NCBI GenBank assembly: GCA_016196295.1
Contig: JACPYA010000076.1
Coordinates: forward strand, 1 to 44,845
Length of the DNA stretch: 44,845 nt
From: Candidatus Peregrinibacteria bacterium
Lineage (GTDB): Bacteria; Patescibacteriota; Gracilibacteria; Peribacterales; Peribacteraceae
Direction of reading: 5' to 3'
Each line of letters begins with the position of its first letter. Position 1 is the stretch's first letter. The notes below the pieces were generated by a model. That model saw only the letters and a program-made list of their open reading frames with translations, made no database searches and was not told the DNA's origin. This document shows positions 22,870 to 37,808 of this stretch, piece after piece. A program made the translations under genes and the position numbers.

Positions 22870-23607
22870 ATGACGCATCCACGACCCACGCAGGCAGCCA
22901 TGCGGGCACACCTCGAACAAGAGGCCCACGGCCACGGCATCGGCGCGTTCGTCCAGGATATGGTCTACGGCGGGAATGACGGCATCGTGACGACGTTCGC
23001 AGTCGTCGCGGGAACCGTCGGAGCAGACTTTCCCTTCACGGTCATCATCGTGCTCGGGCTCGCGAACTTGCTCGCGGACGGCGTATCCATGGCGACCGGC
23101 GCGTACCTTTCGACGAAGTCGGAGCGGGACCAGTACGAGCGTCTCTGGAAGGAGGAGAGCCGTGAGATCGCCGATCATCCGGCCTTGGAGAAGGAGGAAG
23201 TCCGCTCGGCGTACGCCGCGAAAGGGTTCTCGGGAAAAGATCTCGATCGTGCGGTGGAAGTCATCACGGCGGATCGCTCCGTGTGGGTGGAGACGATGAT
23301 GGTGGAGGAGCATGGACTCACGAAGGAGCGCTCCTCTCGTCCGGCGGCCCACGGCATCGTCACCTTCTTCTCGTTCGTGTTCTTCGGGGCGATTCCGCTC
23401 CTGCCCTACCTGCTCCAAATCGACGACCGGTTCCTCATCGCGATCGTTGGAGCGCTGACCGCCATGGCGGTGCTCGGCGTTTCCCGCAGCTACATTACCC
23501 GTGAACGGATCTTCCGAGGAATTGTTGAAGTCGTGGGAGTTGGCGCCGCCAGTGCCACCGTCGCGTACGGGGTCGGTCTGTTCCTACGTGGCTGGATCGC
23601 TTTCTAG
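22870..23607 (+). CDS. VIT1/CCC1-family iron/manganese transporter
   Basis: 245 residues. The first-helix motif [17 protein letters not shown] is diagnostic, and [23 protein letters not shown] is the second. The Glu-rich cytoplasmic region between helices 2 and 3 (about 85-150) binds metal in characterised members. Five helices in total. It should export or store Fe(II)/Mn(II). Its TAG shares a CTAG palindrome with the stop of the convergent proS gene, so the two genes overlap by 4 bp. Confidence 0.9.
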
Positions 23608-25034
23608 TACGCCTTCGCAAACAATGCCCACTCTTTGGCTGTCTCTCCGGAAAGCATGTCCTTCTTCCCCTTTGCGTGCTTGGCGTCCCCGAGCAGGCGA
23701 ATCGTCGCTTTCGTTTTATCCTTGATGGCATTCGCGGTCTTCATGGTGCCATCCCACGGCGCCCAGACGAACCCTCCTTCCCCGTCGATATGTTTTTGGA
23801 GGTCTTTCATCGTGTCCGCTTCGTACGTGTGGTCGTCCATGTACTTCTTCGCTTGGGCGTAGAGAGATTCTTGGATGTTCTGGAGTACTGTCTGCAGGAA
23901 GAAGGTCTCGCACGTCGCCATCGGCAAGCTCTCCTTCGCTCCCGTATCGCGGCGGCACGTCATCACCGCTTTCTTCTCGAGGTCTTTGGGGCCGATCTCG
24001 ATCCTGAGCGGCACGCCTTTCACCTCCCACTCGTTGAACTTGAAGCCCGGCGACTTCTCGTCGCGGTCATCGATGCGCACGCGCAGCTCGGAACCGATCT
24101 GCTCCTTAAGCTTCGTGCAGGCATCCTGCACGGCTTTGCGCTCTGCATCGGTCTTGTAGATCGGCACAATGACGATCTGGATCGGCGCGAGGGAAGGGGG
24201 CAGCCGCAGCCCTTTCTCGTCGCCGTGCACGACGATCACGGTTCCGATGAGGCGCGTCGAAACCCCCCAGCTCGTGATCCACGGCCGCTGCGACTTGCCT
24301 GCTTCGTCGAGGAACGAGAGGTCGTAGGCCTCGGAGAACCCTTGGCCGAGGTTGTGGGACGTACCCGCTTGGATCGCCTTGCCGTCCTTCGCGAGCGCTT
24401 CCGTCGTGAGCGTGTAGAGCGCGCCCGCAAACTTGTCGTGGTCGGGCTTGCGTCCCTGCAGCACGGGGAGCGCGAGGAACTCCCGGTCGAAATCGACGTA
24501 CATCTGCAGCGCCGCTTCCGCCATCTCATCCGCTTCGGCCTTCGTCGCGTGCGCGGTGTGTCCTTCCTGCCAGAGGAATTCCAACGTCCGGAGGAACGGG
24601 CGCGTGCGCATCTCCCACCGGACGATGTTCGCCCACTGGTTGATCTTCAGCGGCAGATCCCTGTGGCTTTGGATCCACTTCGCGAACGTCGCATAGATGA
24701 TGGTCTCGCTCGTCGGGCGGACGTAGAGTTTCTCCGTGAGCTCCTTGCCGCCGCCGTGCGTCACGACCGCGCACTCCGGTGCAAATCCCTTCACGTGCGC
24801 CTGCTCCTTCGCCATCACGGACTCCGGGATGAAGAGCGGGAAGTACGCGTTCTGGACCCCAAGCGCCTTGATGCGACTGTCCATGTCGCGCTGCATCGCT
24901 TCCCAAAGGGCGTACCCGTATGGCTTGAAGATGATGCAGCCCTTCACGATCGCATGTTCCGCGAGGCCCGCCTCCGCGATCACGTCCAAGTACCACTGCG
25001 GGAAATCTGTTTTTGGGTCGGCGAGGCGGGGCAT
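23604..25034 (-). CDS. proS: Prolyl-tRNA synthetase, archaeal/eukaryotic-like short type
   Basis: 476 residues. Class II motif 2 is [24 protein letters not shown] and motif 3 is [18 protein letters not shown]. There is no bacterial editing insertion. The C-terminal zinc-binding-like domain retains CRRDT and ends in [11 protein letters not shown], the conserved terminal Tyr of this type. It charges tRNA-Pro. TAGCAT lies 6 nt before the ATG. Confidence 0.95.
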
Positions 25035-27258: not shown

Positions 27259-27678
27259 TCAACTCAGCCAGATGCCGACCAACGTCACGGCTGCGCCAAA
27301 AACAATGCCACCCAGGACCTCCAGGAACGAGTGGCCCAGGTTCACCGAGAGCTTCTGCCATTTCTGCAAACGATTGAGCAGCTCCGCCTGGCGGCCGACC
27401 TCGCGCCGCACGCCCATCGCGTCGTACCAGACGATGGCCGCGAAGCAGAATGCGATCGCAAACTCCACGGACTCGATCCCTCGCTTGTGTTCGACGATCA
27501 TGAGGAGCGATGTGACGAACGCACTGTGACTGCTGGGCATGCCGCCACTGCGAAAGAGGCGCTCGTGCCAGTTTCCGGTCCGGATTCCTTCTACGGCAAT
27601 CTTCACGAGCTCGCTCAAAACCAGCACGAAGAGGGGAATGAGGAAGAGGTAGGCTCGCAAGTACTCGTGGAGGAGCAT
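27259..27678 (-). CDS. Divergent PAP2 / DUF212 (YuiD-like) membrane protein
   Basis: 139 residues. The phosphatase-like motifs are SGGMPSSHSAFVTSL, VWYDAMGVRREVGRQAELLN and LGHSFLEVLGGI, the three blocks of the DUF212 family related to acid phosphatase/vanadium haloperoxidase. Four helices. Likely a lipid-phosphate phosphatase; activity is unproven for the family. TAAAAT lies 7 nt before the ATG. Confidence 0.88.
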   Translation of the reverse strand: MLLHEYLRAYLFLIPLFVLVLSELVKIAVEGIRTGNWHERLFRSGGMPSSHSAFVTSLLMIVEHKRGIESVEFAIAFCFAAIVWYDAMGVRREVGRQAELLNRLQKWQKLSVNLGHSFLEVLGGIVFGAAVTLVGIWLS

Positions 27679-27699: not shown

Positions 27700-30600
27700 T
27701 CAGGACTTTGCGAGCTCTTTGAATAGTCCTTCGACGGAGAGCAAGTCCGTACGATCTCGATAGAGCGAAATGTTTGGATTCTTGGCAATTCCTCGATTGT
27801 AGAATTCCATGGGTTCCCGCTGCAGTGCCGCGGCCAGACGGGCGAGTCCCTTGTCGTACTGTTCGACGGTGATGTCATCCTCTTGAAGGAGAGCGACACC
27901 GATATCGTCCAAACGGTCTCTCAATTCCTCATAGACTTCGTATCGCGCGAGATCCATCTCGTATCCGTCTGCGATGCCAGGATAATCGGTTGCTTGAAGC
28001 TTCGCTTCCATGCGTTGCAACGGTCCTTGCATGTCACTCAGCAGCATGGCCACCAATTGTTCCAACGCTTGACCTGTTTCCCCGAGCTCGAGTGCCACAT
28101 TGATCTGCAGCACTTTGGCTGCTTGTTCCACGTTGCTCTTGTAATCCTGAAGGAGTTTCCCGCGTTCAAGTTGCTTGTCATCCTTCTTCGGTGGCAAGTC
28201 GGCGTAGATAGCGAGATCAAACTTTTCCGTTTTGCCATCGGCATCCATTCGTCGGTCGATGACCATCGATTCGCCCTTCTCCTGTAATTTTCTGGATACT
28301 GCAATGAGCTCCGCATGACGCAGAGCCGATCGGAATACATCCATGTTCACCGTGTCGAACTGCCCTTGCGTCATCCATCCGATGTACTGGATCTGATCCA
28401 TGACGAGCTGGTCGTACCGATTTTTGAATTGTTGGGGAGTTTCGTCCGGAAGGGCAAGTGGCTTCGTCGTCTTCACCACGTATGCACGACAGAGCTTGTA
28501 TCGTGTCCCGGCATTTTCATTTTCCAGAGCCTTGAAGTTTTCCTCTTCCGCTTTTCTAAATTCATTGCGCGAATAGGTCGCTTTGCGCCAGAGCCATTCT
28601 GCCTGTGTCCCGTATACGATCTTCTGTCCGAATTGATCGAACGTTTTTTCCTGCGAACCCGGTTTCAACTCCATCAGTTTCGCGAGGAGCGCATCCGGAG
28701 ATTTTTTTGCCCAATCTGCCTCCTCCTTCAGCCATCCCCCCGAGGCTTCCTCGAGTTTCTCGTAGTACCAATATGCGACGTAGACCTCTGCGGAGATAGC
28801 GCCGACAGCGAGAGTGGCTCCAGAAGTTACTCCTGTCGCGACCATGGTGCCGATGGTGCCGCCACCAAGCGCCACTTGGGATGCAGATTTGAAATCGCGC
28901 ATGGCATAAAGCTCTTTTAGAGACTCGTTGTCTGTTCCTTCGATACGCGCCCTGTTCATGACGAGCTCGGCCGCGCCCAAGGCAATATCAAAGGAGCCGG
29001 CTGCCGGTCCCAGTGAGCGTCCTGCAAACTTCGCGACGGTTGCCAGTCGCATCATGTATTGAAGGCCGCGCATGCCTCCCGTTCGGATCGCATTGATGAG
29101 CATCTGCAACGCTGGTTTGCACGCATTGAATGCATCCGCCATCCACTGCGGCATGCTGCGGAGCATTCCGGGGATCTCCGGCGCGACATTTTTCACCGCT
29201 CCGAGTACTTCCTGCGTCAGGCGGGTGACGCCGGTGGCATTACTGATAATACGGCCACCTTCAACAGTCATTTTTGCGACATTGTAGGGGGCGATGACGG
29301 GATATTTACCCATCCACAGAGGAAGTCTCGTGTACCATCGATGATGTTGAATGGCGGCGAGGATGCTTTTTTCTGTTCTGAGGGATTGAATGATGCTGGC
29401 AATTTCATGGGGGAGAGCGCCCGAAAGTGTTCGCAGCTCTTTTTCCATTTTTGACAGCTCAGCGAGGTTTCTTGTTGGGCTCTTCAAAAAGTTATGGAGA
29501 ATATCCAAGCCCTGCTGCCCCATTCCTTCTGTAACTATTTTAGCGCGTAACTCGCTGATAAGTGTGCCGGCTCTCTTTTGAATCTCTGCGAGAGCCTGTA
29601 TTTTTGTCAGCTGCTTTCTGAACGTATTAATTTCTCCGGCTGCACTGAGAGATTTTGCAAAATTTTCTGGCAATGTTGCACGTTCATACCAAAATTTCAC
29701 TCCACCAGTCGTTACAAGCAGCGCCAACACAGACGCTGGGATGAATTTATCTGGATTTTCAACTGCCCAATCGAATCCTTCCTGCGCCGTTCCCTTGATA
29801 GCCCCCGCTGTGTTACGAATTCCTTCCGTCGCAACATCCCACACTTTTCCTCCAACCGTTGTGACGATCGTTTCTCCCGCCTGTTGAGCCTCTTGCACCA
29901 CAGCTTCCACCTTTTCGGGGTTTAACTTGTAATACTCTTCTAGCAATTTTCGCACGCCCTCCTTGCCAAGACGTTCTGCGATACGAAATTTTGTCTCCGG
30001 GAACCAGTCGCGTGCTTCTTCGGATGAGACGAAGCGCAGGACCTCCAGCTGCATCATGACGAGACCGATCGGGTTGCCGCTCTGGAGCATCTTGCCATAG
30101 AACGCGAGTCGAACCGCCTGTGCCAGAGGCATTTTTTCAAGGAGGTAGCGGTTTACGGTCTCTCTATTCACCGCTTCGTCCTCTGAAAAGCGGTCATTGG
30201 GGAAAAGTCCGTGGAAGAATGGCAAAATATTCGGAGGATTGTCGCGTATGTGTTCGCAGAGATGGTAGAGCACCTCTTCCGCCGGTTTTGCTGTACCTGA
30301 TGTCATGTGATTTTTTGTTTCTGCATTATTCAAATAACCAAAAGCTGTTCCGGAATAGGTCAGTGAGATGACATCAGCCAAGCTGACATTCTCAAACTGC
30401 GATCGTCCCTTTTTGGTTTTATCGATCACTTTTTGCAGCTCCGCTTTCACAATGGGATCCTGAGTCATCAGGAACTGTTGCTCGATGTTCTTCCACGGTT
30501 CCTCGCTCAAAAACTTCTCACCGTGCAGTTTCGCCTGTTCCAGAATACTTCCAAGCGTCGAGTAGGCTCCGCCTGCTTCTTGCATGAAGCGCTCCAGAGT

Positions 30601-31872
30601 TTCCTCTTCCAGATTTTGCTTCGCGTCCGGACTTCGCTTGTACATCTTCTCCAAATTACTGCGTCTCTGGTGGAAGAATCGCACGACGGCTTCCCCCGCG
30701 ACTAAGTAACTCCGCTGTACTTTGGGATCCGTTGCTTTTTCGTGGAGAGAGAAGAGCCGCGAGAGCGCGTTCTGGTTCACGATGTCGCCATGCATGCAGC
30801 GATAGAGATCGCCGAGCGTCGTCTTCTTGCCGATCATGTCGAAGAGCACATCGGTCACGTATTTGCGTTCCGCCTTGGAGTTTCCCGCAAGAGCGACGAT
30901 GACAGGCGGAAGCATCATGAGTGAGGCGGGCAGCTTTGCTTTCTCCAATTCTTCCTGAGCCCTCTTTGCTGCCCGATTGGCAGGGGTTTGAGGCACTTCT
31001 TGTTCTTTCTTTTCCGCCATTTTCTTCTCGTACATTTCCTGCAGCTTCCGGAGGCCCGCGATCTCTTTCTCGTACGCTTTCTTCTTCCACGCATCCGTCT
31101 CGAGCGCCAGTTTTTGCCGCAGGTCTTCGACGCGAGAGGCGATCGACTGGAGATCCTTGTATTTTTCGGCGAGTTTCCAAATACCAAAGCCGATTCCCGT
31201 CAGCACCGCGCCCGTGAGAACCCACTTGAGGAAAGACCAGGAACTGGAAGCCGCTTCCTTGGTCACCTCTTTCGTTTTCTGCGCGCCCGCCCGCAGCTTC
31301 GAGAGTCCCCATAATGTAAATCCGACGAGAGCGCCGACGCCAGCCACTTTCAAGACGTCACGCACAGTTTCGTTCTTGATGAACGATAGGGTGTTGTCCT
31401 TTGCGACTGTCACCCCCTGCTTCATGACGTCTACACTCTGTCTGACAGCAGAGGATGTCACATCGACGGCAGTGTCCAAGTGCTGTTTTGCTTGATCGAC
31501 GAGTCCTACGGGTGTTTCTGGCCGAATCTTCGTACGAAGTCTTTCGATGTTCGCTTTGGTGCCTGCAATCGTTTGATTCTCTGCCATTGCACGAAGATTT
31601 CTGTCGATCTCCTGACGCTCAATGTCGGGAAGCGTGTTTACGTTCTGCCCGAATTCCTGGAAGAATGCTTCCTGGGCCTTCGGATCAATTCTCTGAATCA
31701 GCGTGGCCAGCTGACGCCCCGTTTCCTGCCGCTGCTCCGGACTTTGTTTTGATTTCTCGGCCTGCAGGATGGTCATCGCTTCTCGCACTTCGGGCGACGG
31801 TCGCAGGTAAGCGAGGCGACGTTCACCAACATGGAAAGGATTGAACCTATGAGGATGAGAGAGGATGAACAT
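27700..31872 (-). CDS. Giant membrane/coiled-coil protein, function unknown
   Basis: 1390 residues, no signal peptide. Two helices near 174-191 and 214-232 are followed by a charged coiled coil (about 235-292). Further hydrophobic segments lie near 710 (VLALLVTTGGVKFWY) and in a glycine-rich stretch around 1045-1090 (ALGGGTIGTMVATGVTSGA). Long helical soluble regions lie between. I recognise no catalytic motif. It is the last of three tightly spaced genes (2 bp after the 66-residue ORF, which is 4 bp after the 397-residue gene), so the three proteins probably form one assembly. Base composition is visibly A+T-richer than the flanks, especially about 29.3-30.5 kb. Confidence 0.75.
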   Translation of the reverse strand: MFILSHPHRFNPFHVGERRLAYLRPSPEVREAMTILQAEKSKQSPEQRQETGRQLATLIQRIDPKAQEAFFQEFGQNVNTLPDIERQEIDRNLRAMAENQTIAGTKANIERLRTKIRPETPVGLVDQAKQHLDTAVDVTSSAVRQSVDVMKQGVTVAKDNTLSFIKNETVRDVLKVAGVGALVGFTLWGLSKLRAGAQKTKEVTKEAASSSWSFLKWVLTGAVLTGIGFGIWKLAEKYKDLQSIASRVEDLRQKLALETDAWKKKAYEKEIAGLRKLQEMYEKKMAEKKEQEVPQTPANRAAKRAQEELEKAKLPASLMMLPPVIVALAGNSKAERKYVTDVLFDMIGKKTTLGDLYRCMHGDIVNQNALSRLFSLHEKATDPKVQRSYLVAGEAVVRFFHQRRSNLEKMYKRSPDAKQNLEEETLERFMQEAGGAYSTLGSILEQAKLHGEKFLSEEPWKNIEQQFLMTQDPIVKAELQKVIDKTKKGRSQFENVSLADVISLTYSGTAFGYLNNAETKNHMTSGTAKPAEEVLYHLCEHIRDNPPNILPFFHGLFPNDRFSEDEAVNRETVNRYLLEKMPLAQAVRLAFYGKMLQSGNPIGLVMMQLEVLRFVSSEEARDWFPETKFRIAERLGKEGVRKLLEEYYKLNPEKVEAVVQEAQQAGETIVTTVGGKVWDVATEGIRNTAGAIKGTAQEGFDWAVENPDKFIPASVLALLVTTGGVKFWYERATLPENFAKSLSAAGEINTFRKQLTKIQALAEIQKRAGTLISELRAKIVTEGMGQQGLDILHNFLKSPTRNLAELSKMEKELRTLSGALPHEIASIIQSLRTEKSILAAIQHHRWYTRLPLWMGKYPVIAPYNVAKMTVEGGRIISNATGVTRLTQEVLGAVKNVAPEIPGMLRSMPQWMADAFNACKPALQMLINAIRTGGMRGLQYMMRLATVAKFAGRSLGPAAGSFDIALGAAELVMNRARIEGTDNESLKELYAMRDFKSASQVALGGGTIGTMVATGVTSGATLAVGAISAEVYVAYWYYEKLEEASGGWLKEEADWAKKSPDALLAKLMELKPGSQEKTFDQFGQKIVYGTQAEWLWRKATYSRNEFRKAEEENFKALENENAGTRYKLCRAYVVKTTKPLALPDETPQQFKNRYDQLVMDQIQYIGWMTQGQFDTVNMDVFRSALRHAELIAVSRKLQEKGESMVIDRRMDADGKTEKFDLAIYADLPPKKDDKQLERGKLLQDYKSNVEQAAKVLQINVALELGETGQALEQLVAMLLSDMQGPLQRMEAKLQATDYPGIADGYEMDLARYEVYEELRDRLDDIGVALLQEDDITVEQYDKGLARLAAALQREPMEFYNRGIAKNPNISLYRDRTDLLSVEGLFKELAKS

Positions 31873-31874
31873 GT

Positions 31875-32075
31875 TTAGTGAGGATTACTAAAAAGAGCGT
31901 TGCCAAACCTCTTGGCAAATCCTGCTGTGCGATTGAGAACAGTCGCACCTGCTGCACCCGCTACATCCGCAACGTCGAAGATGCCGTTGATGCCATCCAC
32001 CGTGTGCGCACGAATAGCTTCGATCCGATTGTGCCGGCCGAAATGTTCCGGTGAGGATGTGGGTGTGAGGGGCAT
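31875..32075 (-). CDS. 66-residue middle protein of the three-gene operon
   Basis: From the ATG at 32075; an earlier in-frame Met would overlap the upstream gene. A polar start (TPTSSPEHFGRHNRIEAIRA) is followed by an Ala/Gly-rich helix (VADVAGAAGATVLNRTAGF). No family recognised. The gaps of 4 and 2 bp to its neighbours support translation. Confidence 0.6.
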   Translation of the reverse strand: MPLTPTSSPEHFGRHNRIEAIRAHTVDGINGIFDVADVAGAAGATVLNRTAGFAKRFGNALFSNPH

Positions 32076-32079
32076 GGCC

Positions 32080-33273
32080 TTATGAAAGGAAGCGCACAAG
32101 ATCGGCGCCGGTATCGTTGCCCTGTTCATCTTTGATCATTTTGGGTTCCTGCGACGTTGCAAGGTGTTCCAAAAATTCACCGACCTTAGAGGCATTGAGA
32201 GATGATTTTTTTGTTTCCGCGAAGATCCAACCACTTCCCGTCACTTCCATTGCTAATTTTTCGCCTGTCCATTCAAGTGCATCGATGGTGATTTTCTTCC
32301 CTGCTGCCTTACCCCGTTTCCCAACGATTGTCCACGTTTTTCCGTTCACGATGATTTTTGCTTTATCTCCATGTGTCTCTATACGATAGGGTTTTCCATT
32401 GAAATTAAAGCTAAATATTCCGCTCAAGAGATCCATGGCAGGCGGGAGATCTTGAGGTTTCTCCGGGGACGCCGCGGGAGGAGGATTCTCGCCTGGCTTG
32501 TTTTGCCCCGCTGTGGCCGGAGCTTTTGGCTGCGGTTTGGGCGCTTCCTGTTTCATGCCATTGACCATCGTGTCAGCCAGAGGAACAAGTTCTTCGACGA
32601 TCAGGTTCGTACGACCGCTTTGATTTTTGATAAATTCAGCGACGAGATCGTTGTAAAAATCCTGCGATTCGTAGCCGGGCCGTTTCGCCTTCGCTTGCTT
32701 CGCATATCCTGTCAGCTTCTCGATCGCAGCGCTGTCGATACTCGGGTCTGCCGGATTGAAGAGCGGCTGGAGCCCGGCATTTTTCAGTGCAGAGCAGAGC
32801 ATCAGCGTATCCATTCCCAGGAACCCCGCGGCCATCGAGACGTAGCTTTCAATACTCTCTTTGAAGAAGGGAATTTTGATTTTCTTCAGTTGATTGACGA
32901 TCGGAGCCAAGTAATAGGATAGCTGATTCTGGAAATAACTCAGCTTTGTGATGAAAGTTTCAAACATTCCCGTAAATCGATCCAAAGTACCCACGACCAG
33001 TCCTGCGGTGGGTCCTGCAACGGTCGAAGCTGTCGCTTCCACTCCAGCTTTCAACGCGGTACCTGCCGCAGTTCCATTCATGCGATTTTCAATGTTCGAA
33101 AGCTGTTGTGCTTGGGTTTTCTTTTCCACCTTTTCACGCTGTCTTCGCGCGTCCGCTTCCACTCGCTCGCGTTCAGCCTCAGCAGGGGGTTTCCGTTGTT
33201 CCTGTGGTGCAACAGATGGCCTTGCGGGAGTGATGTTCGGAGCCTCTGGCGGGGTTTTGTCCGGGGGGGGCAT
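32080..33273 (-). CDS. First protein of the three-gene operon: Pro/Glu-rich head, helical middle, beta tail
   Basis: 397 residues. Residues 1-60 are Pro-, Arg- and Glu-rich and probably disordered or coiled. Residues 68-95 form a Gly/Ala-rich amphipathic stretch. About 100-245 is helical. A Pro/Ala linker (250-285) leads to a strand-rich C-terminal domain (FNGKPYRIETHGDKAKIIVNG, then KTWTIVG). No enzyme motif seen. The promoter with an operator-like inverted repeat is directly upstream; HPF is divergent. Confidence 0.7.
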   Translation of the reverse strand: MPPPDKTPPEAPNITPARPSVAPQEQRKPPAEAERERVEADARRQREKVEKKTQAQQLSNIENRMNGTAAGTALKAGVEATASTVAGPTAGLVVGTLDRFTGMFETFITKLSYFQNQLSYYLAPIVNQLKKIKIPFFKESIESYVSMAAGFLGMDTLMLCSALKNAGLQPLFNPADPSIDSAAIEKLTGYAKQAKAKRPGYESQDFYNDLVAEFIKNQSGRTNLIVEELVPLADTMVNGMKQEAPKPQPKAPATAGQNKPGENPPPAASPEKPQDLPPAMDLLSGIFSFNFNGKPYRIETHGDKAKIIVNGKTWTIVGKRGKAAGKKITIDALEWTGEKLAMEVTGSGWIFAETKKSSLNASKVGEFLEHLATSQEPKMIKDEQGNDTGADLVRFLS

Positions 33274-33286
33274 TGCGAATCAATAA

Positions 33287-33308
33287 ATCTATGTATTTTA
33301 GCATAGAT
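33287..33308 (-). promoter_or_regulatory. Promoter of the three-gene operon with 7-bp inverted repeat across the -10
   Basis: ATCTATG-N8-CATAGAT is perfect, and the N8 contains TAAAAT (minus strand, 33295-33300). TTGTAA lies 17 bp further upstream as the -35. A protein bound to the repeat would block RNA polymerase (inference). Confidence 0.6.
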
Positions 33309-33348
33309 ACGCCATTTTTACAACGTTCGGAGCGGGTGCGATTTATGC

Positions 33349-33354
33349 TAGGAT
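33349..33354 (+). promoter_or_regulatory. -10-like box of the HPF gene
   Basis: TAGGAT, followed by a C/U-rich leader (33361-33381, 19 of 21) before the ATG. Confidence 0.4.
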
Positions 33355-33381
33355 ACGCCATTCCATTCCTCTCTTTTTCAC

Positions 33382-33744
33382 ATGAATGTCCAACACTTTG
33401 AGAAGGGACTGCACTATTCGGACCGCGAGTTTTTGCTTCTGGCGAAGAAAATCGGGCGGCTTGCCACGTACTGCGAGCGTCTCAAGGATGAAGCGTCGTG
33501 GATCCGCATCGATGCGGATCGCCGCCCCACCGAAAAAGCACAAGATCGAATAAAAGTGACGATCACCGTGGAACTTCCGAAGGCGGCATTTCGGGTGGAA
33601 TCGCGCCGATCCACGGCTTTGCGAGCTATCGATCGCTGCATCGAAAAACTCGAACCCCAAATCAAGCGGTACAAAGAGATGCACACGGGCAAAGGGAGAG
33701 CGAGAACGCATTACATGCGAGCGAGGAAAAAGCGCGCCGCATAA
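33382..33744 (+). CDS. hpf: Ribosome hibernation-promoting factor, short S30AE type
   Basis: 120 residues. The S30AE pattern is present: a helix with a conserved KKIGRLATYCERL stretch, strand pairs ending in DRIKVTITVELP, and the final helix AIDRCIEKLEPQIKRYKEMH. The basic tail (GRARTHYMRARKKR) suits rRNA contact. It binds the 30S decoding region and silences ribosomes in starvation. It lacks the dimerisation domain of long HPF. Divergent from the three-gene operon. Confidence 0.8.
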   Translation: MNVQHFEKGLHYSDREFLLLAKKIGRLATYCERLKDEASWIRIDADRRPTEKAQDRIKVTITVELPKAAFRVESRRSTALRAIDRCIEKLEPQIKRYKEMHTGKGRARTHYMRARKKRAA

Positions 33745-33757
33745 GTGCAAAGTGCTG

Positions 33758-33763
33758 TATAAT
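33758..33763 (+). promoter_or_regulatory. -10 box of the PKD-7TM gene
   Basis: Exact TATAAT, 7 nt before the ATG at 33771, the clearest leaderless promoter in the window. Confidence 0.65.
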
Positions 33764-33770
33764 GCCGCGT

Positions 33771-35303
33771 ATGCAGAAAACGATCGCCGCGATCGGTCTC
33801 GCGTTCCTCATGCCTCTGCTCGTCTCCGCACAGGAGGCCGACGATCTTCCCGAAGCGGATGTCGTGGAGGAGTCGGGCGCCATCCGCGCCGTCATTCGGG
33901 GCCCGGAAGATATCGCCGTCGGCCGCACCATCATTTTGGATGCCTCAGCCAGCCGCATCGTCGGCGAGAACGTGCAGTACCGGTGGTACGTGGGGAGTTC
34001 CTTCCAGCCGATCAGCCGCACATTGGAGGCCGTCTACACGCCCGAACAGCCCGGAGCGCTCATCTTTCGCCTGGTCATCCACTCGACGATCGACGGGCAA
34101 GTTCAGGAGTCCGAGACGGAACACCAGGTCATCGTATTTGATCGCAAGATCGTCCTCATCGCCGATCCGGCGATCCCGAAAGACAAGCTGGAGCTCCACG
34201 CGAAGTCGGCGGATGCCGCGGGCGTGTACCTGAAAGTCCTGCAGCCACAGGCGGAGACGACGCCGCTCGGGACGGAAGAGGCGCTCTTCAACCTGCTCTC
34301 GGAACGCACGACCGCGCTCGTGGATGCGGAGGCAACCATCATCTGGACGGATGGCATCGCGGGGCTTCAGGCGCTCATGCGATCCGCCGAGGGCAATCCC
34401 GAGCGCCTCACGTCCATTCAGAATCAGTCGATCATGCTCATCACCGAGCAGAGCCTGCAGACCCTCGCGCGCACGGCTCGCGGACCGTTCTCCATCCTCC
34501 GCCCCCGGCAGATCCTCGTCACGCGTCCGGAAGCCATCCATCCGCTTCTGACAGCGGAAAACATGGAGACGTTCCTGCAGGAGTTGATCCAGCGCGACAT
34601 CGGCCACCTCATCGTCGATGCGACGACTGCGGGCGTTCGCCCGTGGAACCTGCTCTCCTCGCTTGTGAACTACATGCTCACGCACGGCGTCTCCAGCCAG
34701 ACCGTCATCCTCCTTCTCGTGCTCCCGATCATCGCGACGATCCTCGCGTTCATGAAACAGGTGATCGGCATCACGACCTTCGGGCTCTTCGCCCCGTCCA
34801 TCGTGGTGCTCAGCTTCCTCGTGCTCGGGTGGTGGGTCGGCGTCATCTTCCTGCTCTTCATCCTCTCGACGGGGTATGTGACGCGCATGTTCATGCGCCG
34901 GTGGCGCCTCCTCTATATACCCAAGGTCGCGATCATCCTGACCGTCGTCAGTATCACGCTCCTCCTGTTGCTCGGCCTCGGCGCGTTCTACGGCATCGCG
35001 TTCAACCGCGACACGGTGTTCGTGCTGCTCATCATGTCTACCCTCGCGGAGAGCTTCTTGAACTTGAAAACGGAGGAAGGGTGGTACACGGCGGTGCTGG
35101 AAGTGGGGGAGACGATCCTCGTCGCGCTCCTCTGCGTGTTCATCATCCAGTGGCCGTCATTCCAATCGATGCTGCTCGCGTATCCGGAGCTGATCCTCCT
35201 CACGATCGTCGCAAACGTCTTCCTCGGACGGTGGACGGGACTGCGGATCGTGGAATATTTCCGATTTAGAGAAGTGTTCCGCCATCTTCAGGAGGAGGAA
35301 TGA
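33771..35303 (+). CDS. Exported PKD-like domain fused to a seven-helix membrane domain (7TM_transglut type)
   Basis: 510 residues from the ATG at 33771. Residues 1-20 are a signal peptide. About 38-124 is a PKD/Ig-like sandwich (GRTIILDASAS and YRWYVG are classic). About 126-290 is an alpha/beta region. About 311-495 holds seven helices with GITTFGLFAPSIVVLSFLVLG, matching the 7TM module usually fused to an inactive transglutaminase. Such modules are encoded with ATP-grasp peptide ligases and peptidases, exactly as found next door. A role in making or exporting a peptide-modified product is inferred. Confidence 0.75.
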   Translation: MQKTIAAIGLAFLMPLLVSAQEADDLPEADVVEESGAIRAVIRGPEDIAVGRTIILDASASRIVGENVQYRWYVGSSFQPISRTLEAVYTPEQPGALIFRLVIHSTIDGQVQESETEHQVIVFDRKIVLIADPAIPKDKLELHAKSADAAGVYLKVLQPQAETTPLGTEEALFNLLSERTTALVDAEATIIWTDGIAGLQALMRSAEGNPERLTSIQNQSIMLITEQSLQTLARTARGPFSILRPRQILVTRPEAIHPLLTAENMETFLQELIQRDIGHLIVDATTAGVRPWNLLSSLVNYMLTHGVSSQTVILLLVLPIIATILAFMKQVIGITTFGLFAPSIVVLSFLVLGWWVGVIFLLFILSTGYVTRMFMRRWRLLYIPKVAIILTVVSITLLLLLGLGAFYGIAFNRDTVFVLLIMSTLAESFLNLKTEEGWYTAVLEVGETILVALLCVFIIQWPSFQSMLLAYPELILLTIVANVFLGRWTGLRIVEYFRFREVFRHLQEEE

Positions 35304-35420
35304 TTTTTGAATTGTTGAATTGTTACATTGGTGCATTGTTCGCAAGCGATTACCAAACTTTATGACATCGATCCTCACAACAGGCTTAGCTAACAATGTA
35401 ACACTGTAGCAATGTAATTT
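35304..35420. repeat. Locus-private word repeat (word TTACATTG)
   Basis: GAATTGTTGAATTGTTACATTG on the left (35309-35330, in two overlapping units) and AACAATGTAACACTG, AGCAATGTAA on the right form a long imperfect hairpin between the two co-directional genes. Confidence 0.5.
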
Positions 35421-37808
35421 ATGCTCCCATTTTTCTCATCACGCGGCGTCCTCGGATTGAATGCGCGCAATCTGCTCTACATCAAGCCGTTCAATCCCCG
35501 CAAAGCGGTCGCGTTCGCGGATGACAAACTGAAAACGAAGGCATTCCTCGCGGCGCGCGGCATTCCGGTTGCGAAAATCTACGCGAAGATCGAGACCCGG
35601 GCACAGCTTCAGGCGTTTGATTTCGCTGCACTCCCCGATGAGTGTGTCCTGAAGCCAAACTACGGTTTCGGCGGCGAGGGGATTTTGATCCTCAAAGGAC
35701 GCAAGGACGGGGAGTTTCTGGTCCAGGGCAAGAAGCCGATCTCCGATCTCGAGCTCCGCGAGCACATCGAGGACATCCTCGACGGAAAATTTTCCATCAG
35801 CGGGCGAGCCGACACCGCCTTCTTCGAAAAAATCCTCGTCGCGGACCCCGCATTCGCGCCCTTTCGACCCACGGGACTGCCCGACATCCGCATCGTCGTC
35901 TTCAATCTCGTGCCGATCATGGCGATGATCCGCATTCCGACCGCGCAGAGCTCGGGCAAGGCCAATGTCCACCTCGGGGGCATTGGCATTGGCATCGATA
36001 TTGCAAAAGGAGTCACCACCCACGCGACGCAGTACAACAAGATCCTCAAGGAGCTGCCGCACGGCGGTTCCCCCGCGGGCATCGCGATTCCCCGCTGGGA
36101 AGAGATGCTTCTTATTTCCTCGCGCATCCAGCAAATCACGAACATCGGCTACCTGGCGGTCGATCTGACCCTCGACGCCGACCAGGGCCCGGCGCTCCTG
36201 GAGGTCAATGCGCGCGCAGGACTGATGCTCCAGGTCGCGAATCTCGCGCCGCTTCGGTCGCGCCTCGAACGGGTGGAAGGATTGAAGGTCAGCTCACCGG
36301 AGAAAGCCGTGCGCATCGCGCAGGATCTTTTCGGCGAGAAAGTGCGTACGCGCAAAGAAGAGGAAGGCGGACAGAAGCCGCTCCTCGGCACGCGCGAAGT
36401 GATCGTCATCTCCGGTGCGGGCGTGACGATCTCCGTGCCGAGCATCATCGCTCCGTACGAAGAGCGTTCCGTTTTCTCACCCGATCTCGTGGAGGAATTG
36501 CGCAAAGCGAACGGGCTCGACGTGGAAGACGAAGAAGAGGGGACATACCGCGTGAAGTTTTCGCTCGCGGGCAAAAAGATCCAGACGCTTGTGCACGAGG
36601 GCACCGTTCCGGTTCCCTCCGCTCGCGCGCTCATCGGGCGCCGGGACCTCTCCGGGTTCCTCATCGATCCCGTGAAGGAGACGAAGCATTCGCTCGTCGG
36701 CCTTGCGGTGCGGGAAGATCTCCGCGCGGTCGATAACGTGCTCGCCATGGCCGACAGGGCGCTTCTGCCGCTGAAGCAATTGAAGCCCACGAACCTGCAG
36801 GAGGAGCGCCAGAAAGCGACGAGCGACCGCGCCTACAACCCCGTCTTCAGCTTCCCGCCGCTCCCCGAAAACATCGACGAGCTCGAACAGCGGCTCTCCG
36901 GCCTCGTGCCGGATGACACGCCGCTCGGGATCCTCTTCCAGAAGAAGAGGCGCGAACTCCTCACGCGCATCTCGCTCTTCCGTGCGCGTGGCAATGCCGT
37001 GCGGTTCACCGAAGCATCGCTCTCGCTCTACGGCTCTCCGAGCGCGGTCCTCCTCTCCCATGCCGCCGCAGTGCTGCGCTCACGGATCGCGTGCGACCTC
37101 CCCGCGAGCGAAGGAAAAGTCCTGGATGCGGCCGCCGCCTCCGTGCGCTTCGAGCAAGCACTGGAGCAGTACGGCCTCCACGAGTGGCAGGTGCAGGTGC
37201 GGCCCGGCGTCGTCTCCGACTGTACCGTGGGGCGCAAGCGCGTGTACCTGCGGCAATCCGCCACCTTCACCCAAGCGCGTCTGGAAGCGCTGATCGCGCA
37301 TGAGATCGAGACGCACGCGCTGACGCAGGTCAATGGAGACCATCAGCCTTTTGAACTCCTGCACATCGGCACCGCGAACTACATGGATACGCAGGAAGGT
37401 CTCGCGATCTATAACCAAAACGCCGTGCTCTCGCCGCATCACGACAAGCGCTACGATCCCGCGAAGAACGTCCTCGCCGTGGCGTACGCGCTTGACCACT
37501 CCTTCGCGGATGTCCGCCGGTACCTGGAAGAAGGGCTCTCCTACGCTCCCGACGCGGCGCTCATGCGCGCGATCCGCCTCAAGCGCGGCATGGGCGACAC
37601 GTCCGAGCCCGGAGCGTTCACGCGTGACATCGTCTACTTCCGCGGGTTCCGCGCGGTCGAACGCTTCGCGGAAGAAGGAGGGGATTTGAAACGTTTGTAT
37701 GTGGGCAAAGTTGCGGTGGAGGATCTTCCTCTTATCGAGCAGATTCCGGGGTTGAAACAACCGCTCGTGCTGCCGGAGTTTTTGAGAATGGCGAAGAAAG
37801 GCAAATAG
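35421..37808 (+). CDS. Triple fusion: ATP-grasp ligase / RimB-like domain / DUF1704 metallopeptidase
   Basis: 795 residues. The alpha-L-glutamate-ligase-like ATP-grasp spans about 1-305 (VLKPNYGFGGEG 76-87, DIRIVVFNLVP 155-165, LEVNARAGL 260-268). A RimB-like retropepsin-fold domain follows at about 322-420 (GRRDLSGFLIDP 406-417); its usual DTGA reads ISGAG, so the aspartyl active site looks lost. The DUF1704/MATCAP peptidase spans about 435-795, with zinc motif HEIETH (627-632) and the QEGLA motif (658-662). Ligase and peptidase in one chain suggest addition and removal of amino acids on the same target (inference). Confidence 0.85.
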   Translation: MLPFFSSRGVLGLNARNLLYIKPFNPRKAVAFADDKLKTKAFLAARGIPVAKIYAKIETRAQLQAFDFAALPDECVLKPNYGFGGEGILILKGRKDGEFLVQGKKPISDLELREHIEDILDGKFSISGRADTAFFEKILVADPAFAPFRPTGLPDIRIVVFNLVPIMAMIRIPTAQSSGKANVHLGGIGIGIDIAKGVTTHATQYNKILKELPHGGSPAGIAIPRWEEMLLISSRIQQITNIGYLAVDLTLDADQGPALLEVNARAGLMLQVANLAPLRSRLERVEGLKVSSPEKAVRIAQDLFGEKVRTRKEEEGGQKPLLGTREVIVISGAGVTISVPSIIAPYEERSVFSPDLVEELRKANGLDVEDEEEGTYRVKFSLAGKKIQTLVHEGTVPVPSARALIGRRDLSGFLIDPVKETKHSLVGLAVREDLRAVDNVLAMADRALLPLKQLKPTNLQEERQKATSDRAYNPVFSFPPLPENIDELEQRLSGLVPDDTPLGILFQKKRRELLTRISLFRARGNAVRFTEASLSLYGSPSAVLLSHAAAVLRSRIACDLPASEGKVLDAAAASVRFEQALEQYGLHEWQVQVRPGVVSDCTVGRKRVYLRQSATFTQARLEALIAHEIETHALTQVNGDHQPFELLHIGTANYMDTQEGLAIYNQNAVLSPHHDKRYDPAKNVLAVAYALDHSFADVRRYLEEGLSYAPDAALMRAIRLKRGMGDTSEPGAFTRDIVYFRGFRAVERFAEEGGDLKRLYVGKVAVEDLPLIEQIPGLKQPLVLPEFLRMAKKGK

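What the first reader, a model, noticed from the sequence alone, without database searches (positions are those of the whole stretch)
27700..33308. Unknown three-gene operon (397 + 66 + 1390 residues) with its own operator
Gaps of 4 and 2 bp, one promoter with a 7-bp inverted repeat across the -10 (33287-33308), no recognisable domains, membrane helices and coiled coil in the giant partner, and A+T-richer DNA. It occupies one eighth of the window in an otherwise compact genome, so it must matter. A cell-surface or envelope-spanning assembly is a reasonable guess.
Basis: partly seen in the sequence, partly recalled or inferred. Interest (0 to 1): 0.75.

Follow-up and report, generated by a model that had tools for sequence, protein, structure and literature searches.

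The report
Swappable giant-protein operon of Peribacteria
Peribacteria, a group of tiny uncultured bacteria, keep at one fixed place in the chromosome a small operon for an unknown, probably membrane-bound giant protein and its partners, whose back halves are exchanged between close relatives while the genes on either side stay the same; its function is unknown, but it behaves like a molecule shaped by contact with other cells or viruses.

Summary
The three-gene operon is real (397, 66 and 1390 aa; gaps of 4 and 2 bp; one good promoter). The "operator" is not supported: the 7-bp inverted repeat is one of 104 comparable ones in the window, is unique in the genome and absent from relatives; what recurs is an extended -10 promoter. 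No domain, PDB or fold library recognises the proteins. Relatives occur almost only in the window's own family of Candidatus Peribacteria. There they fill one fixed slot, divergent from an S30AE gene and upstream of PDDEXK/DUF212/ProRS: 20 of 31 fully bordered slots hold a giant, 7 hold other genes only, 4 are empty. Giants share an N-terminal chassis with a membrane hairpin and carry one of two mutually exclusive C-terminal module types. Type differs within three genera whose bordering genes are 63-93% identical; slot genes are 17-21% identical between loci where neighbours are 51-72%. dN/dS of 0.16-0.33 (readable pairs) shows they are maintained. Best reading: a membrane-anchored, polymorphic giant-protein assembly, probably facing hosts, neighbours or phages (confidence 0.4). 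Which side of the membrane the giant lies on, and what it does, are unproven.

The parts
32080..33273 (-). Gene 1, 397 aa (P3 family): disordered Pro-rich start, long amphipathic helices (30-131), compact helical domain (135-240), Pro/Ala linker, C-terminal beta domain
   Evidence: ORF; AF2 model pLDDT 75, helical domain 88-97; family only in own taxonomic family
32092..32436 (-). C-terminal beta domain of gene 1 (aa 280-394): seven strands then a helix
   Evidence: Same domain in 20 proteins of the slot, E 1e-6 to 1e-28; secondary structure; resemblance to PH domains weak (E 0.27-0.36)
31875..32075 (-). Gene 2, 66 aa small protein with a Gly/Ala-rich amphipathic stretch
   Evidence: ORF; small ORFs of 66-151 aa at the same place in most relatives
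27700..31872 (-). Gene 3, 1390 aa giant
   Evidence: ORF; family by profile in 36 of 74 genomes of the own family
31093..31872 (-). N-module of the giant (aa 1-260)
   Evidence: Profile positions ~1-260; the part still shared when the rest is exchanged
31180..31356 (-). Membrane hairpin of the giant (aa 173-231): helix, basic loop, helix
   Evidence: 28 relatives: median charge of loop +4, flanks +1 and +1
29488..31035 (-). M-module of the giant (about aa 280-795), all helical
   Evidence: Profile; AF2 pLDDT mostly 80-96 for aa ~315-450
27715..29268 (-). C-module of the giant, type C (about aa 869-1386), all helical; replaced by unrelated type L in some relatives
   Evidence: AF2 pLDDT mostly 87-97 over the last ~300 aa
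33295..33323 (-). Promoter of the operon, TTGTAA-17-TAAAAT with extended -10
33287..33308 (.). 7-bp inverted repeat ATCTATG-N8-CATAGAT (the proposed operator); not beyond chance, not conserved
33382..33744 (+). Border gene: S30AE (ribosome-hibernation-factor-like), divergent from the slot
   Evidence: Pfam PF02482 E 1.3e-7; borders the slot in most relatives
33762..35303 (+). Neighbour: 7TM protein of the inactive-transglutaminase type (RloB-like); start not certain
   Evidence: PF14402 E 2.7e-24; found in 56 of 74 family genomes
35421..37808 (+). Neighbour: ATP-grasp fused to MATCAP peptidase domain
   Evidence: PF14397 E 5.6e-59, PF08014 E 1.1e-51
27259..27678 (-). Border gene: DUF212, starts 21 bp after the giant's stop codon
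   Evidence: PF02681 E 8.6e-39
23604..25034 (-). Outer border: prolyl-tRNA synthetase-like gene
   Evidence: PF00587, PF03129, PF09180

Best explanation
The operon makes a membrane-attached protein assembly peculiar to Peribacteria. SHOWN: a constant N-terminal chassis with a hydrophobic hairpin, exchangeable C-terminal modules of ~480 or ~740 aa, a partner with an amphipathic or hairpin part plus a C-terminal beta domain, and a small amphipathic protein, all in one fixed slot that can be full, partly filled or empty. The genes change far faster than their neighbours yet stay under purifying selection. INFERRED: the hairpin anchors giant and partner in the cytoplasmic membrane with their working parts on the same side; the small protein helps insertion or assembly; the exchangeable helical part is the working or recognition end. 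The pattern (constant anchor, swapped end, presence and absence) best fits a polymorphic molecule that meets something variable outside the cell: host or neighbour cells, or phage.
For: Conserved operon and slot in many genera and an out-of-sample confirmation in G084 and G081. N hairpin in 28 giants, loop charge +2 or more in 25. Two mutually exclusive C-terminal types on one chassis (NMC 7, NML 3, NC 12, NL 1, none with both), differing within three genera: g60 (L106/L107 type L, L114 type C), g32 (L126 L; L035, L140 C), g28 (L025 L; L148 C), whose bordering genes are 63-93% identical; in L106/L114 similarity stops at aa 235-238; in L025/L148 the partner's similarity stops before the beta domain. 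Median identity between loci: giant N 19-21%, C 17-19%, against 7TM 56%, ATP-grasp 72%, S30AE 55%, PDDEXK 51%. dN/dS of giant genes 0.16-0.33. Empty slots in L112, L120, L123, L125. Literature: strain variation in Ca. Peribacter riflensis concentrates in very large proteins (PMC4736985); giant membrane proteins of the related epibiont Vampirococcus are held to act in host attachment (PMC8080830).
Against: No signal peptide, no known adhesin, secretion or surface domain, and few cysteines (0.29%), unlike the Cys-rich exported giants described for Ca. P. riflensis (PMC4736985). The basic loop suggests termini outside, the lack of an export signal suggests inside; side unresolved. Fast evolution alone does not prove contact with hosts. 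Giant identities are near saturation, so the missing correlation of giant and backbone distances is weak support. No host, expression or localisation data.
Confidence: 0.4

Rival explanations
1. A scaffold on the inner face of the cytoplasmic membrane (cell shape, membrane organisation), fast-evolving because structural helical proteins tolerate change.
For: No signal peptide; all-helical giant model; few cysteines; anchoring hairpin; small amphipathic partners.
Against: Exchange of whole C-terminal types within genera and empty slots are unusual for a housekeeping scaffold; the basic loop would sit outside against the positive-inside rule.
Confidence: 0.25
2. A secreted or delivered contact-dependent effector or pore-former: the hairpin inserts in a target membrane and the exchangeable C-terminal part is the payload.
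For: Constant N-terminus with exchanged C-terminus is the layout of polymorphic toxins; hydrophobic segments in N and C modules.
Against: No toxin or delivery domain; no consistent small gene downstream that could be an immunity gene; similarity to tripartite alpha-pore toxins is at noise level (SmhB E 0.37; SmhA E 1.7).
Confidence: 0.13
3. An anti-phage or conflict system in a variable defence slot.
For: Fixed slot with variable, sometimes absent content; two mutually exclusive modules.
Against: No PADLOC match; no nuclease, NTPase or other effector recognised in the operon; modules are long helical proteins without recognisable catalytic motifs.
Confidence: 0.1
4. A phage-tail-derived injection apparatus in which the giant is a tape-measure-like protein.
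For: Long all-helical protein with hydrophobic hairpin and variable length; best viral fold hit is a tape measure domain protein (E 0.01).
Against: TM-scores about 0.1; no tail tube gene in the own genome (assembly 86% complete) and only 1 of 70 family genomes over the cut-off; no tail genes next to the operon; no match among phages.
Confidence: 0.05

Closest known systems
Very large variable proteins of Ca. Peribacter riflensis (PMC4736985)
   Same: Same bacterial group; very large proteins are where strains differ. G027, whose length of 1,248,026 bp fits that species, carries the operon (L025).
   Different: Those described in detail are Cys-rich and mostly with signal peptides; this family is Cys-poor without one. 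Whether the 1865-aa giant of G027 is among the seven variable proteins could not be checked.
Giant membrane proteins of Vampirococcus lugosii (Absconditabacteria; PMC8080830)
   Same: Giant, membrane-located proteins in a related lineage, thought to mediate host attachment.
   Different: No sequence link tested; the paper says most have known domains; this family has none recognised.
Polymorphic toxin and contact-dependent systems (from general knowledge)
   Same: Constant N-terminal part with exchanged C-terminal part between close relatives.
   Different: No known delivery, pre-toxin or toxin domain, no immunity gene; the exchanged part is 480-740 aa or more, not ~100-150 aa.
Rlo system of Pseudomonas aeruginosa (RloB 7TM inactive transglutaminase, RloC ATP-grasp; PMC12239564)
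   Same: Domain types of the divergent neighbours match RloB and RloC, which act in osmotic and envelope stress.
   Different: Only neighbours: in G027 (L025) and G015 (L030) the giant operon stands without them near by, so it is not dependent on adjacent copies.

Membership tests
Polymorphic toxin (contact-dependent or secreted) | Recognisable N-terminal delivery domain (signal peptide, LXG, filamentous haemagglutinin, PAAR, Rhs etc.) | tested here: not met
   Pfam, NCBIfam, PHROGs without matches
Polymorphic toxin (contact-dependent or secreted) | C-terminal toxin domain exchanged between relatives | tested here: inconclusive
   C-terminal exchange is present but no toxin domain is recognised
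Polymorphic toxin (contact-dependent or secreted) | Immunity gene directly downstream | tested here: not met
   Downstream genes are housekeeping types PDDEXK, DUF212, ProRS in most loci
Cys-rich exported giants of Peribacter | High cysteine content and signal peptide | tested here: not met
   0.29% Cys in the giant, 0.25% in gene 1; no hydrophobic N-terminal segment
Phage tail / contractile injection system | Tail tube protein in the genome | tested here: not met
   PF06841 not found in own genome (assembly 86% complete); 1 of 70 relatives over the cut-off
Anti-phage defence system | Match to known defence proteins | tested here: not met
   PADLOC without match
Membrane-anchored surface assembly | Membrane-spanning segment | tested here: met
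   Hairpin in 28 giants, inferred from hydropathy only
Membrane-anchored surface assembly | Bulk of the protein outside the cell | not testable with these tools
   Topology signals conflict (no signal peptide)

The most novel reading that the evidence does not exclude
A new polymorphic contact system confined to Peribacteria: a membrane-anchored giant with exchangeable C-terminal working modules, co-encoded with a beta-domain partner and a small membrane peptide, kept at one chromosomal address and changed by cassette exchange as hosts, neighbours or phages change.
Probability: 0.3. Interest if true: 0.85.

Novelty: new variant of a known kind. Interest (0 to 1): 0.62.

Why it matters
How Patescibacteria recognise and hold other cells is a long-standing open question, and candidate molecules are few. 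This locus gives a concrete, address-defined candidate family in a whole family of Peribacteria, with module types that can be compared with host ranges or phage pressure. If instead it proves an internal scaffold, it would be a giant, rapidly evolving structural protein family unknown elsewhere.

Tried and rejected
Operator idea: rejected by chance level, uniqueness and non-conservation. Known domains: Pfam, NCBIfam, PHROGs, PADLOC and PDB sequence searches gave nothing credible. Fold searches gave no hit at E 0.001 or better; weak PH-like and tape-measure-like hits not relied on. Phage, plasmid and viral-contig origin: no relatives found, though the viral-contig scan used a single protein and reaches close relatives only. 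Shared domain between gene 1 and the giant's M-module: not supported; the N hairpin model does not hit gene-1 proteins either. The giants as substrates of the neighbouring Rlo-like enzymes: weakened because L025 and L030 have the operon without those genes near by. Distance correlations (giant N against giant C r -0.01; giant against 7TM negative) are reported with a saturation warning. 'ProRS' identities are ignored because that profile mixes several tRNA synthetases.
Full report
OBSERVATION. The three minus-strand ORFs are as described: 33273-32080 (397 aa), 32075-31875 (66 aa), 31872-27700 (1390 aa), separated by 4 and 2 bp. A sigma-70-type promoter with extended -10 (TTGTAA-17-TAAAAT, 33323-33295) is the only one found in the 108-bp divergent spacer. 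G+C is 0.52 against 0.57 for the window. The proposed operator is an ordinary repeat: 104 perfect 7-bp inverted repeats (spacers 0-15) exist in the window, 7.3% of shuffled spacers contain one, the site is single in the assembly, and spacers of relatives do not have it. What recurs there is the -10 box: 15 of 42 spacers carry GCTA[AT][AT]AT on the operon strand against 1 of 42 in the reversed control.

IDENTITY. None of the three proteins matches Pfam, NCBIfam, PHROGs, PADLOC or PDB sequences credibly. Profile searches of whole genomes find the giant's C-terminal region in 36 of 74 genomes of the window's own family, in one further family of the class (G255; 288 genomes drawn), and in no genome outside the own family in a phylum-wide draw of 380. 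The 397-aa family was found only in the own family (18 of 269 genomes of the class).

ADDRESS. I fetched the surroundings of giants and of the neighbouring 7TM gene. The operon occupies one slot: on one side a divergent S30AE gene, then usually the 7TM and ATP-grasp/MATCAP genes; on the other side PDDEXK, DUF212 and a ProRS-like gene in the same direction as the operon. Of 31 slots with both borders in hand, 20 hold a giant of at least 1000 aa, 7 hold other genes only, and 4 are empty (L112, L120, L123, L125). In many filled slots the order is [optional ~73-aa protein][optional 300-540-aa proteins][beta-domain protein][66-151-aa protein][giant]. Gene calls are longest-ORF based, so small genes and starts are approximate. 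As an out-of-sample check, four new genomes found only through the 397-aa family were fetched: G084 and G081 show the full arrangement, G087 has a 1679-aa ORF in the slot not recognised by the giant profile, and G071 has the beta-domain protein without a giant. A second group of giants lies elsewhere, preceded by ~150- and ~200-aa genes, in several cases next to LepA- or lysyl/aspartyl-tRNA-synthetase-like genes. So the triplet is a real unit but not an obligate one.

ANATOMY. The giants have an N-module (~260 aa), an M-module and a C-terminal module; in L026 and L144 the N and C modules are separate genes. All 28 giants with an N-module show two moderately hydrophobic helices around a loop that is usually basic (median charge +4, flanks +1 and +1; loop at least +2 in 25). 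Several relatives of gene 1 have a similar pair of helices, although the N-module profile does not detect them and profile comparison finds no relation between gene 1 and the giant. AlphaFold2 on alignments of relatives gives an all-helical giant (aa 215-1390, mean pLDDT 75, mostly 87-97 over the last ~300 residues) and, for gene 1, a compact helical domain, a Pro/Ala linker and a seven-stranded beta domain ending in a helix. That order of elements recalls a PH domain, but the fold search is not significant. No fold match for the giant in PDB or viral models.

EVOLUTION. Between slots, giant modules are 17-21% identical while 7TM is 56%, ATP-grasp 72%, S30AE 55%, DUF212 56% and PDDEXK 51%. Among closer pairs giant genes have dN/dS 0.16-0.33 against about 0.03-0.15 for reliable neighbours: maintained, but less constrained. 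Beside the type-C module (~480 aa), a second type L (~740 aa) sits on the same chassis: N-M-C in 7 proteins, N-M-L in 3, N-C in 12, N-L in 1, never both C and L. In three genera close relatives differ in type although bordering genes are similar (7TM 80-83% in g60 and g32; S30AE 89% and PDDEXK 68% in g28). In L106 against L114 similarity ends at aa 235-238 of the giant; in L025 against L148 the partner is 61% identical over aa 112-317 and then unlike. In G011/G096 the C-module gene has dS 0.17 while S30AE and PDDEXK have 0.41-0.55, which would fit a more recent exchange. Correlations of giant with backbone distances are absent, but identities are near saturation and I give this little weight. 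All genomes are taken to be metagenome assemblies; chimeric contigs cannot be excluded singly, but they would not explain a repeated pattern with the same borders.

MECHANISM. Shown: family, slot, modules, exchange, purifying selection. Inferred: membrane anchoring by the hairpin, complex formation of the three products, and a role at a changing external interface. The main uncertainty is sidedness: a basic loop suggests that both ends lie outside, the missing signal peptide suggests inside. I favour a polymorphic membrane-anchored assembly (0.4), then an internal scaffold (0.25), an effector (0.13), a defence system (0.1) and a tail-derived device (0.05; the tube gene is missing).

KNOWN KINDS. 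Very large, strain-variable proteins are reported for Ca. Peribacter riflensis (PMC4736985), and giant membrane proteins are proposed to act in host attachment in the related Vampirococcus (PMC8080830). The present family differs in lacking signal peptide, cysteine richness and known domains. The divergent neighbours resemble RloB and RloC of P. aeruginosa in domain type (PMC12239564), but at least two operons stand without them near by.

Noticed in passing
L115, L121, L122, L024, L107, L114, L140 small proteins; several giants: Small slot proteins often end in Ala-Ala (7 of 15, giants 10 of 50) against 31 of 670 called genes overall; could be a C-terminal degradation or processing signal. The window's own three proteins do not end so.
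   Followed up: partly
window 33762-37808: 7TM inactive-transglutaminase-type protein followed by an ATP-grasp protein fused to a MATCAP peptidase domain: an Rlo-like pair with a different peptidase type, widespread in this bacterial family.
   Followed up: partly
L023, L147, L028, L033, L151, L154, L163: A second group of giant genes, preceded by ~150- and ~200-aa genes in several genomes and in some next to LepA- or lysyl/aspartyl-tRNA-synthetase-like genes.
   Followed up: partly
L026 and L144 (G011, G096): Giant C-module gene has dS 0.17 while flanking S30AE and PDDEXK have 0.41-0.55, suggesting more recent exchange of the giant.
   Followed up: no
L210 and L212 (G080): Two T4 gp19-type tail tube proteins (E 3e-37, 6e-35) in one Peribacteria genome: a possible contractile-tail-like element.
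   Followed up: no
L206 (G084), L104 (G030): Two tandem beta-domain proteins upstream of the giant, suggesting duplication of the partner gene.
   Followed up: no
window 33274-33381: A sequence close to AATGGCGTATC..TA occurs twice in the divergent spacer on the minus strand, about 50 bp apart, the second copy overlapping the operon's -10 box (seen by eye).
   Followed up: no
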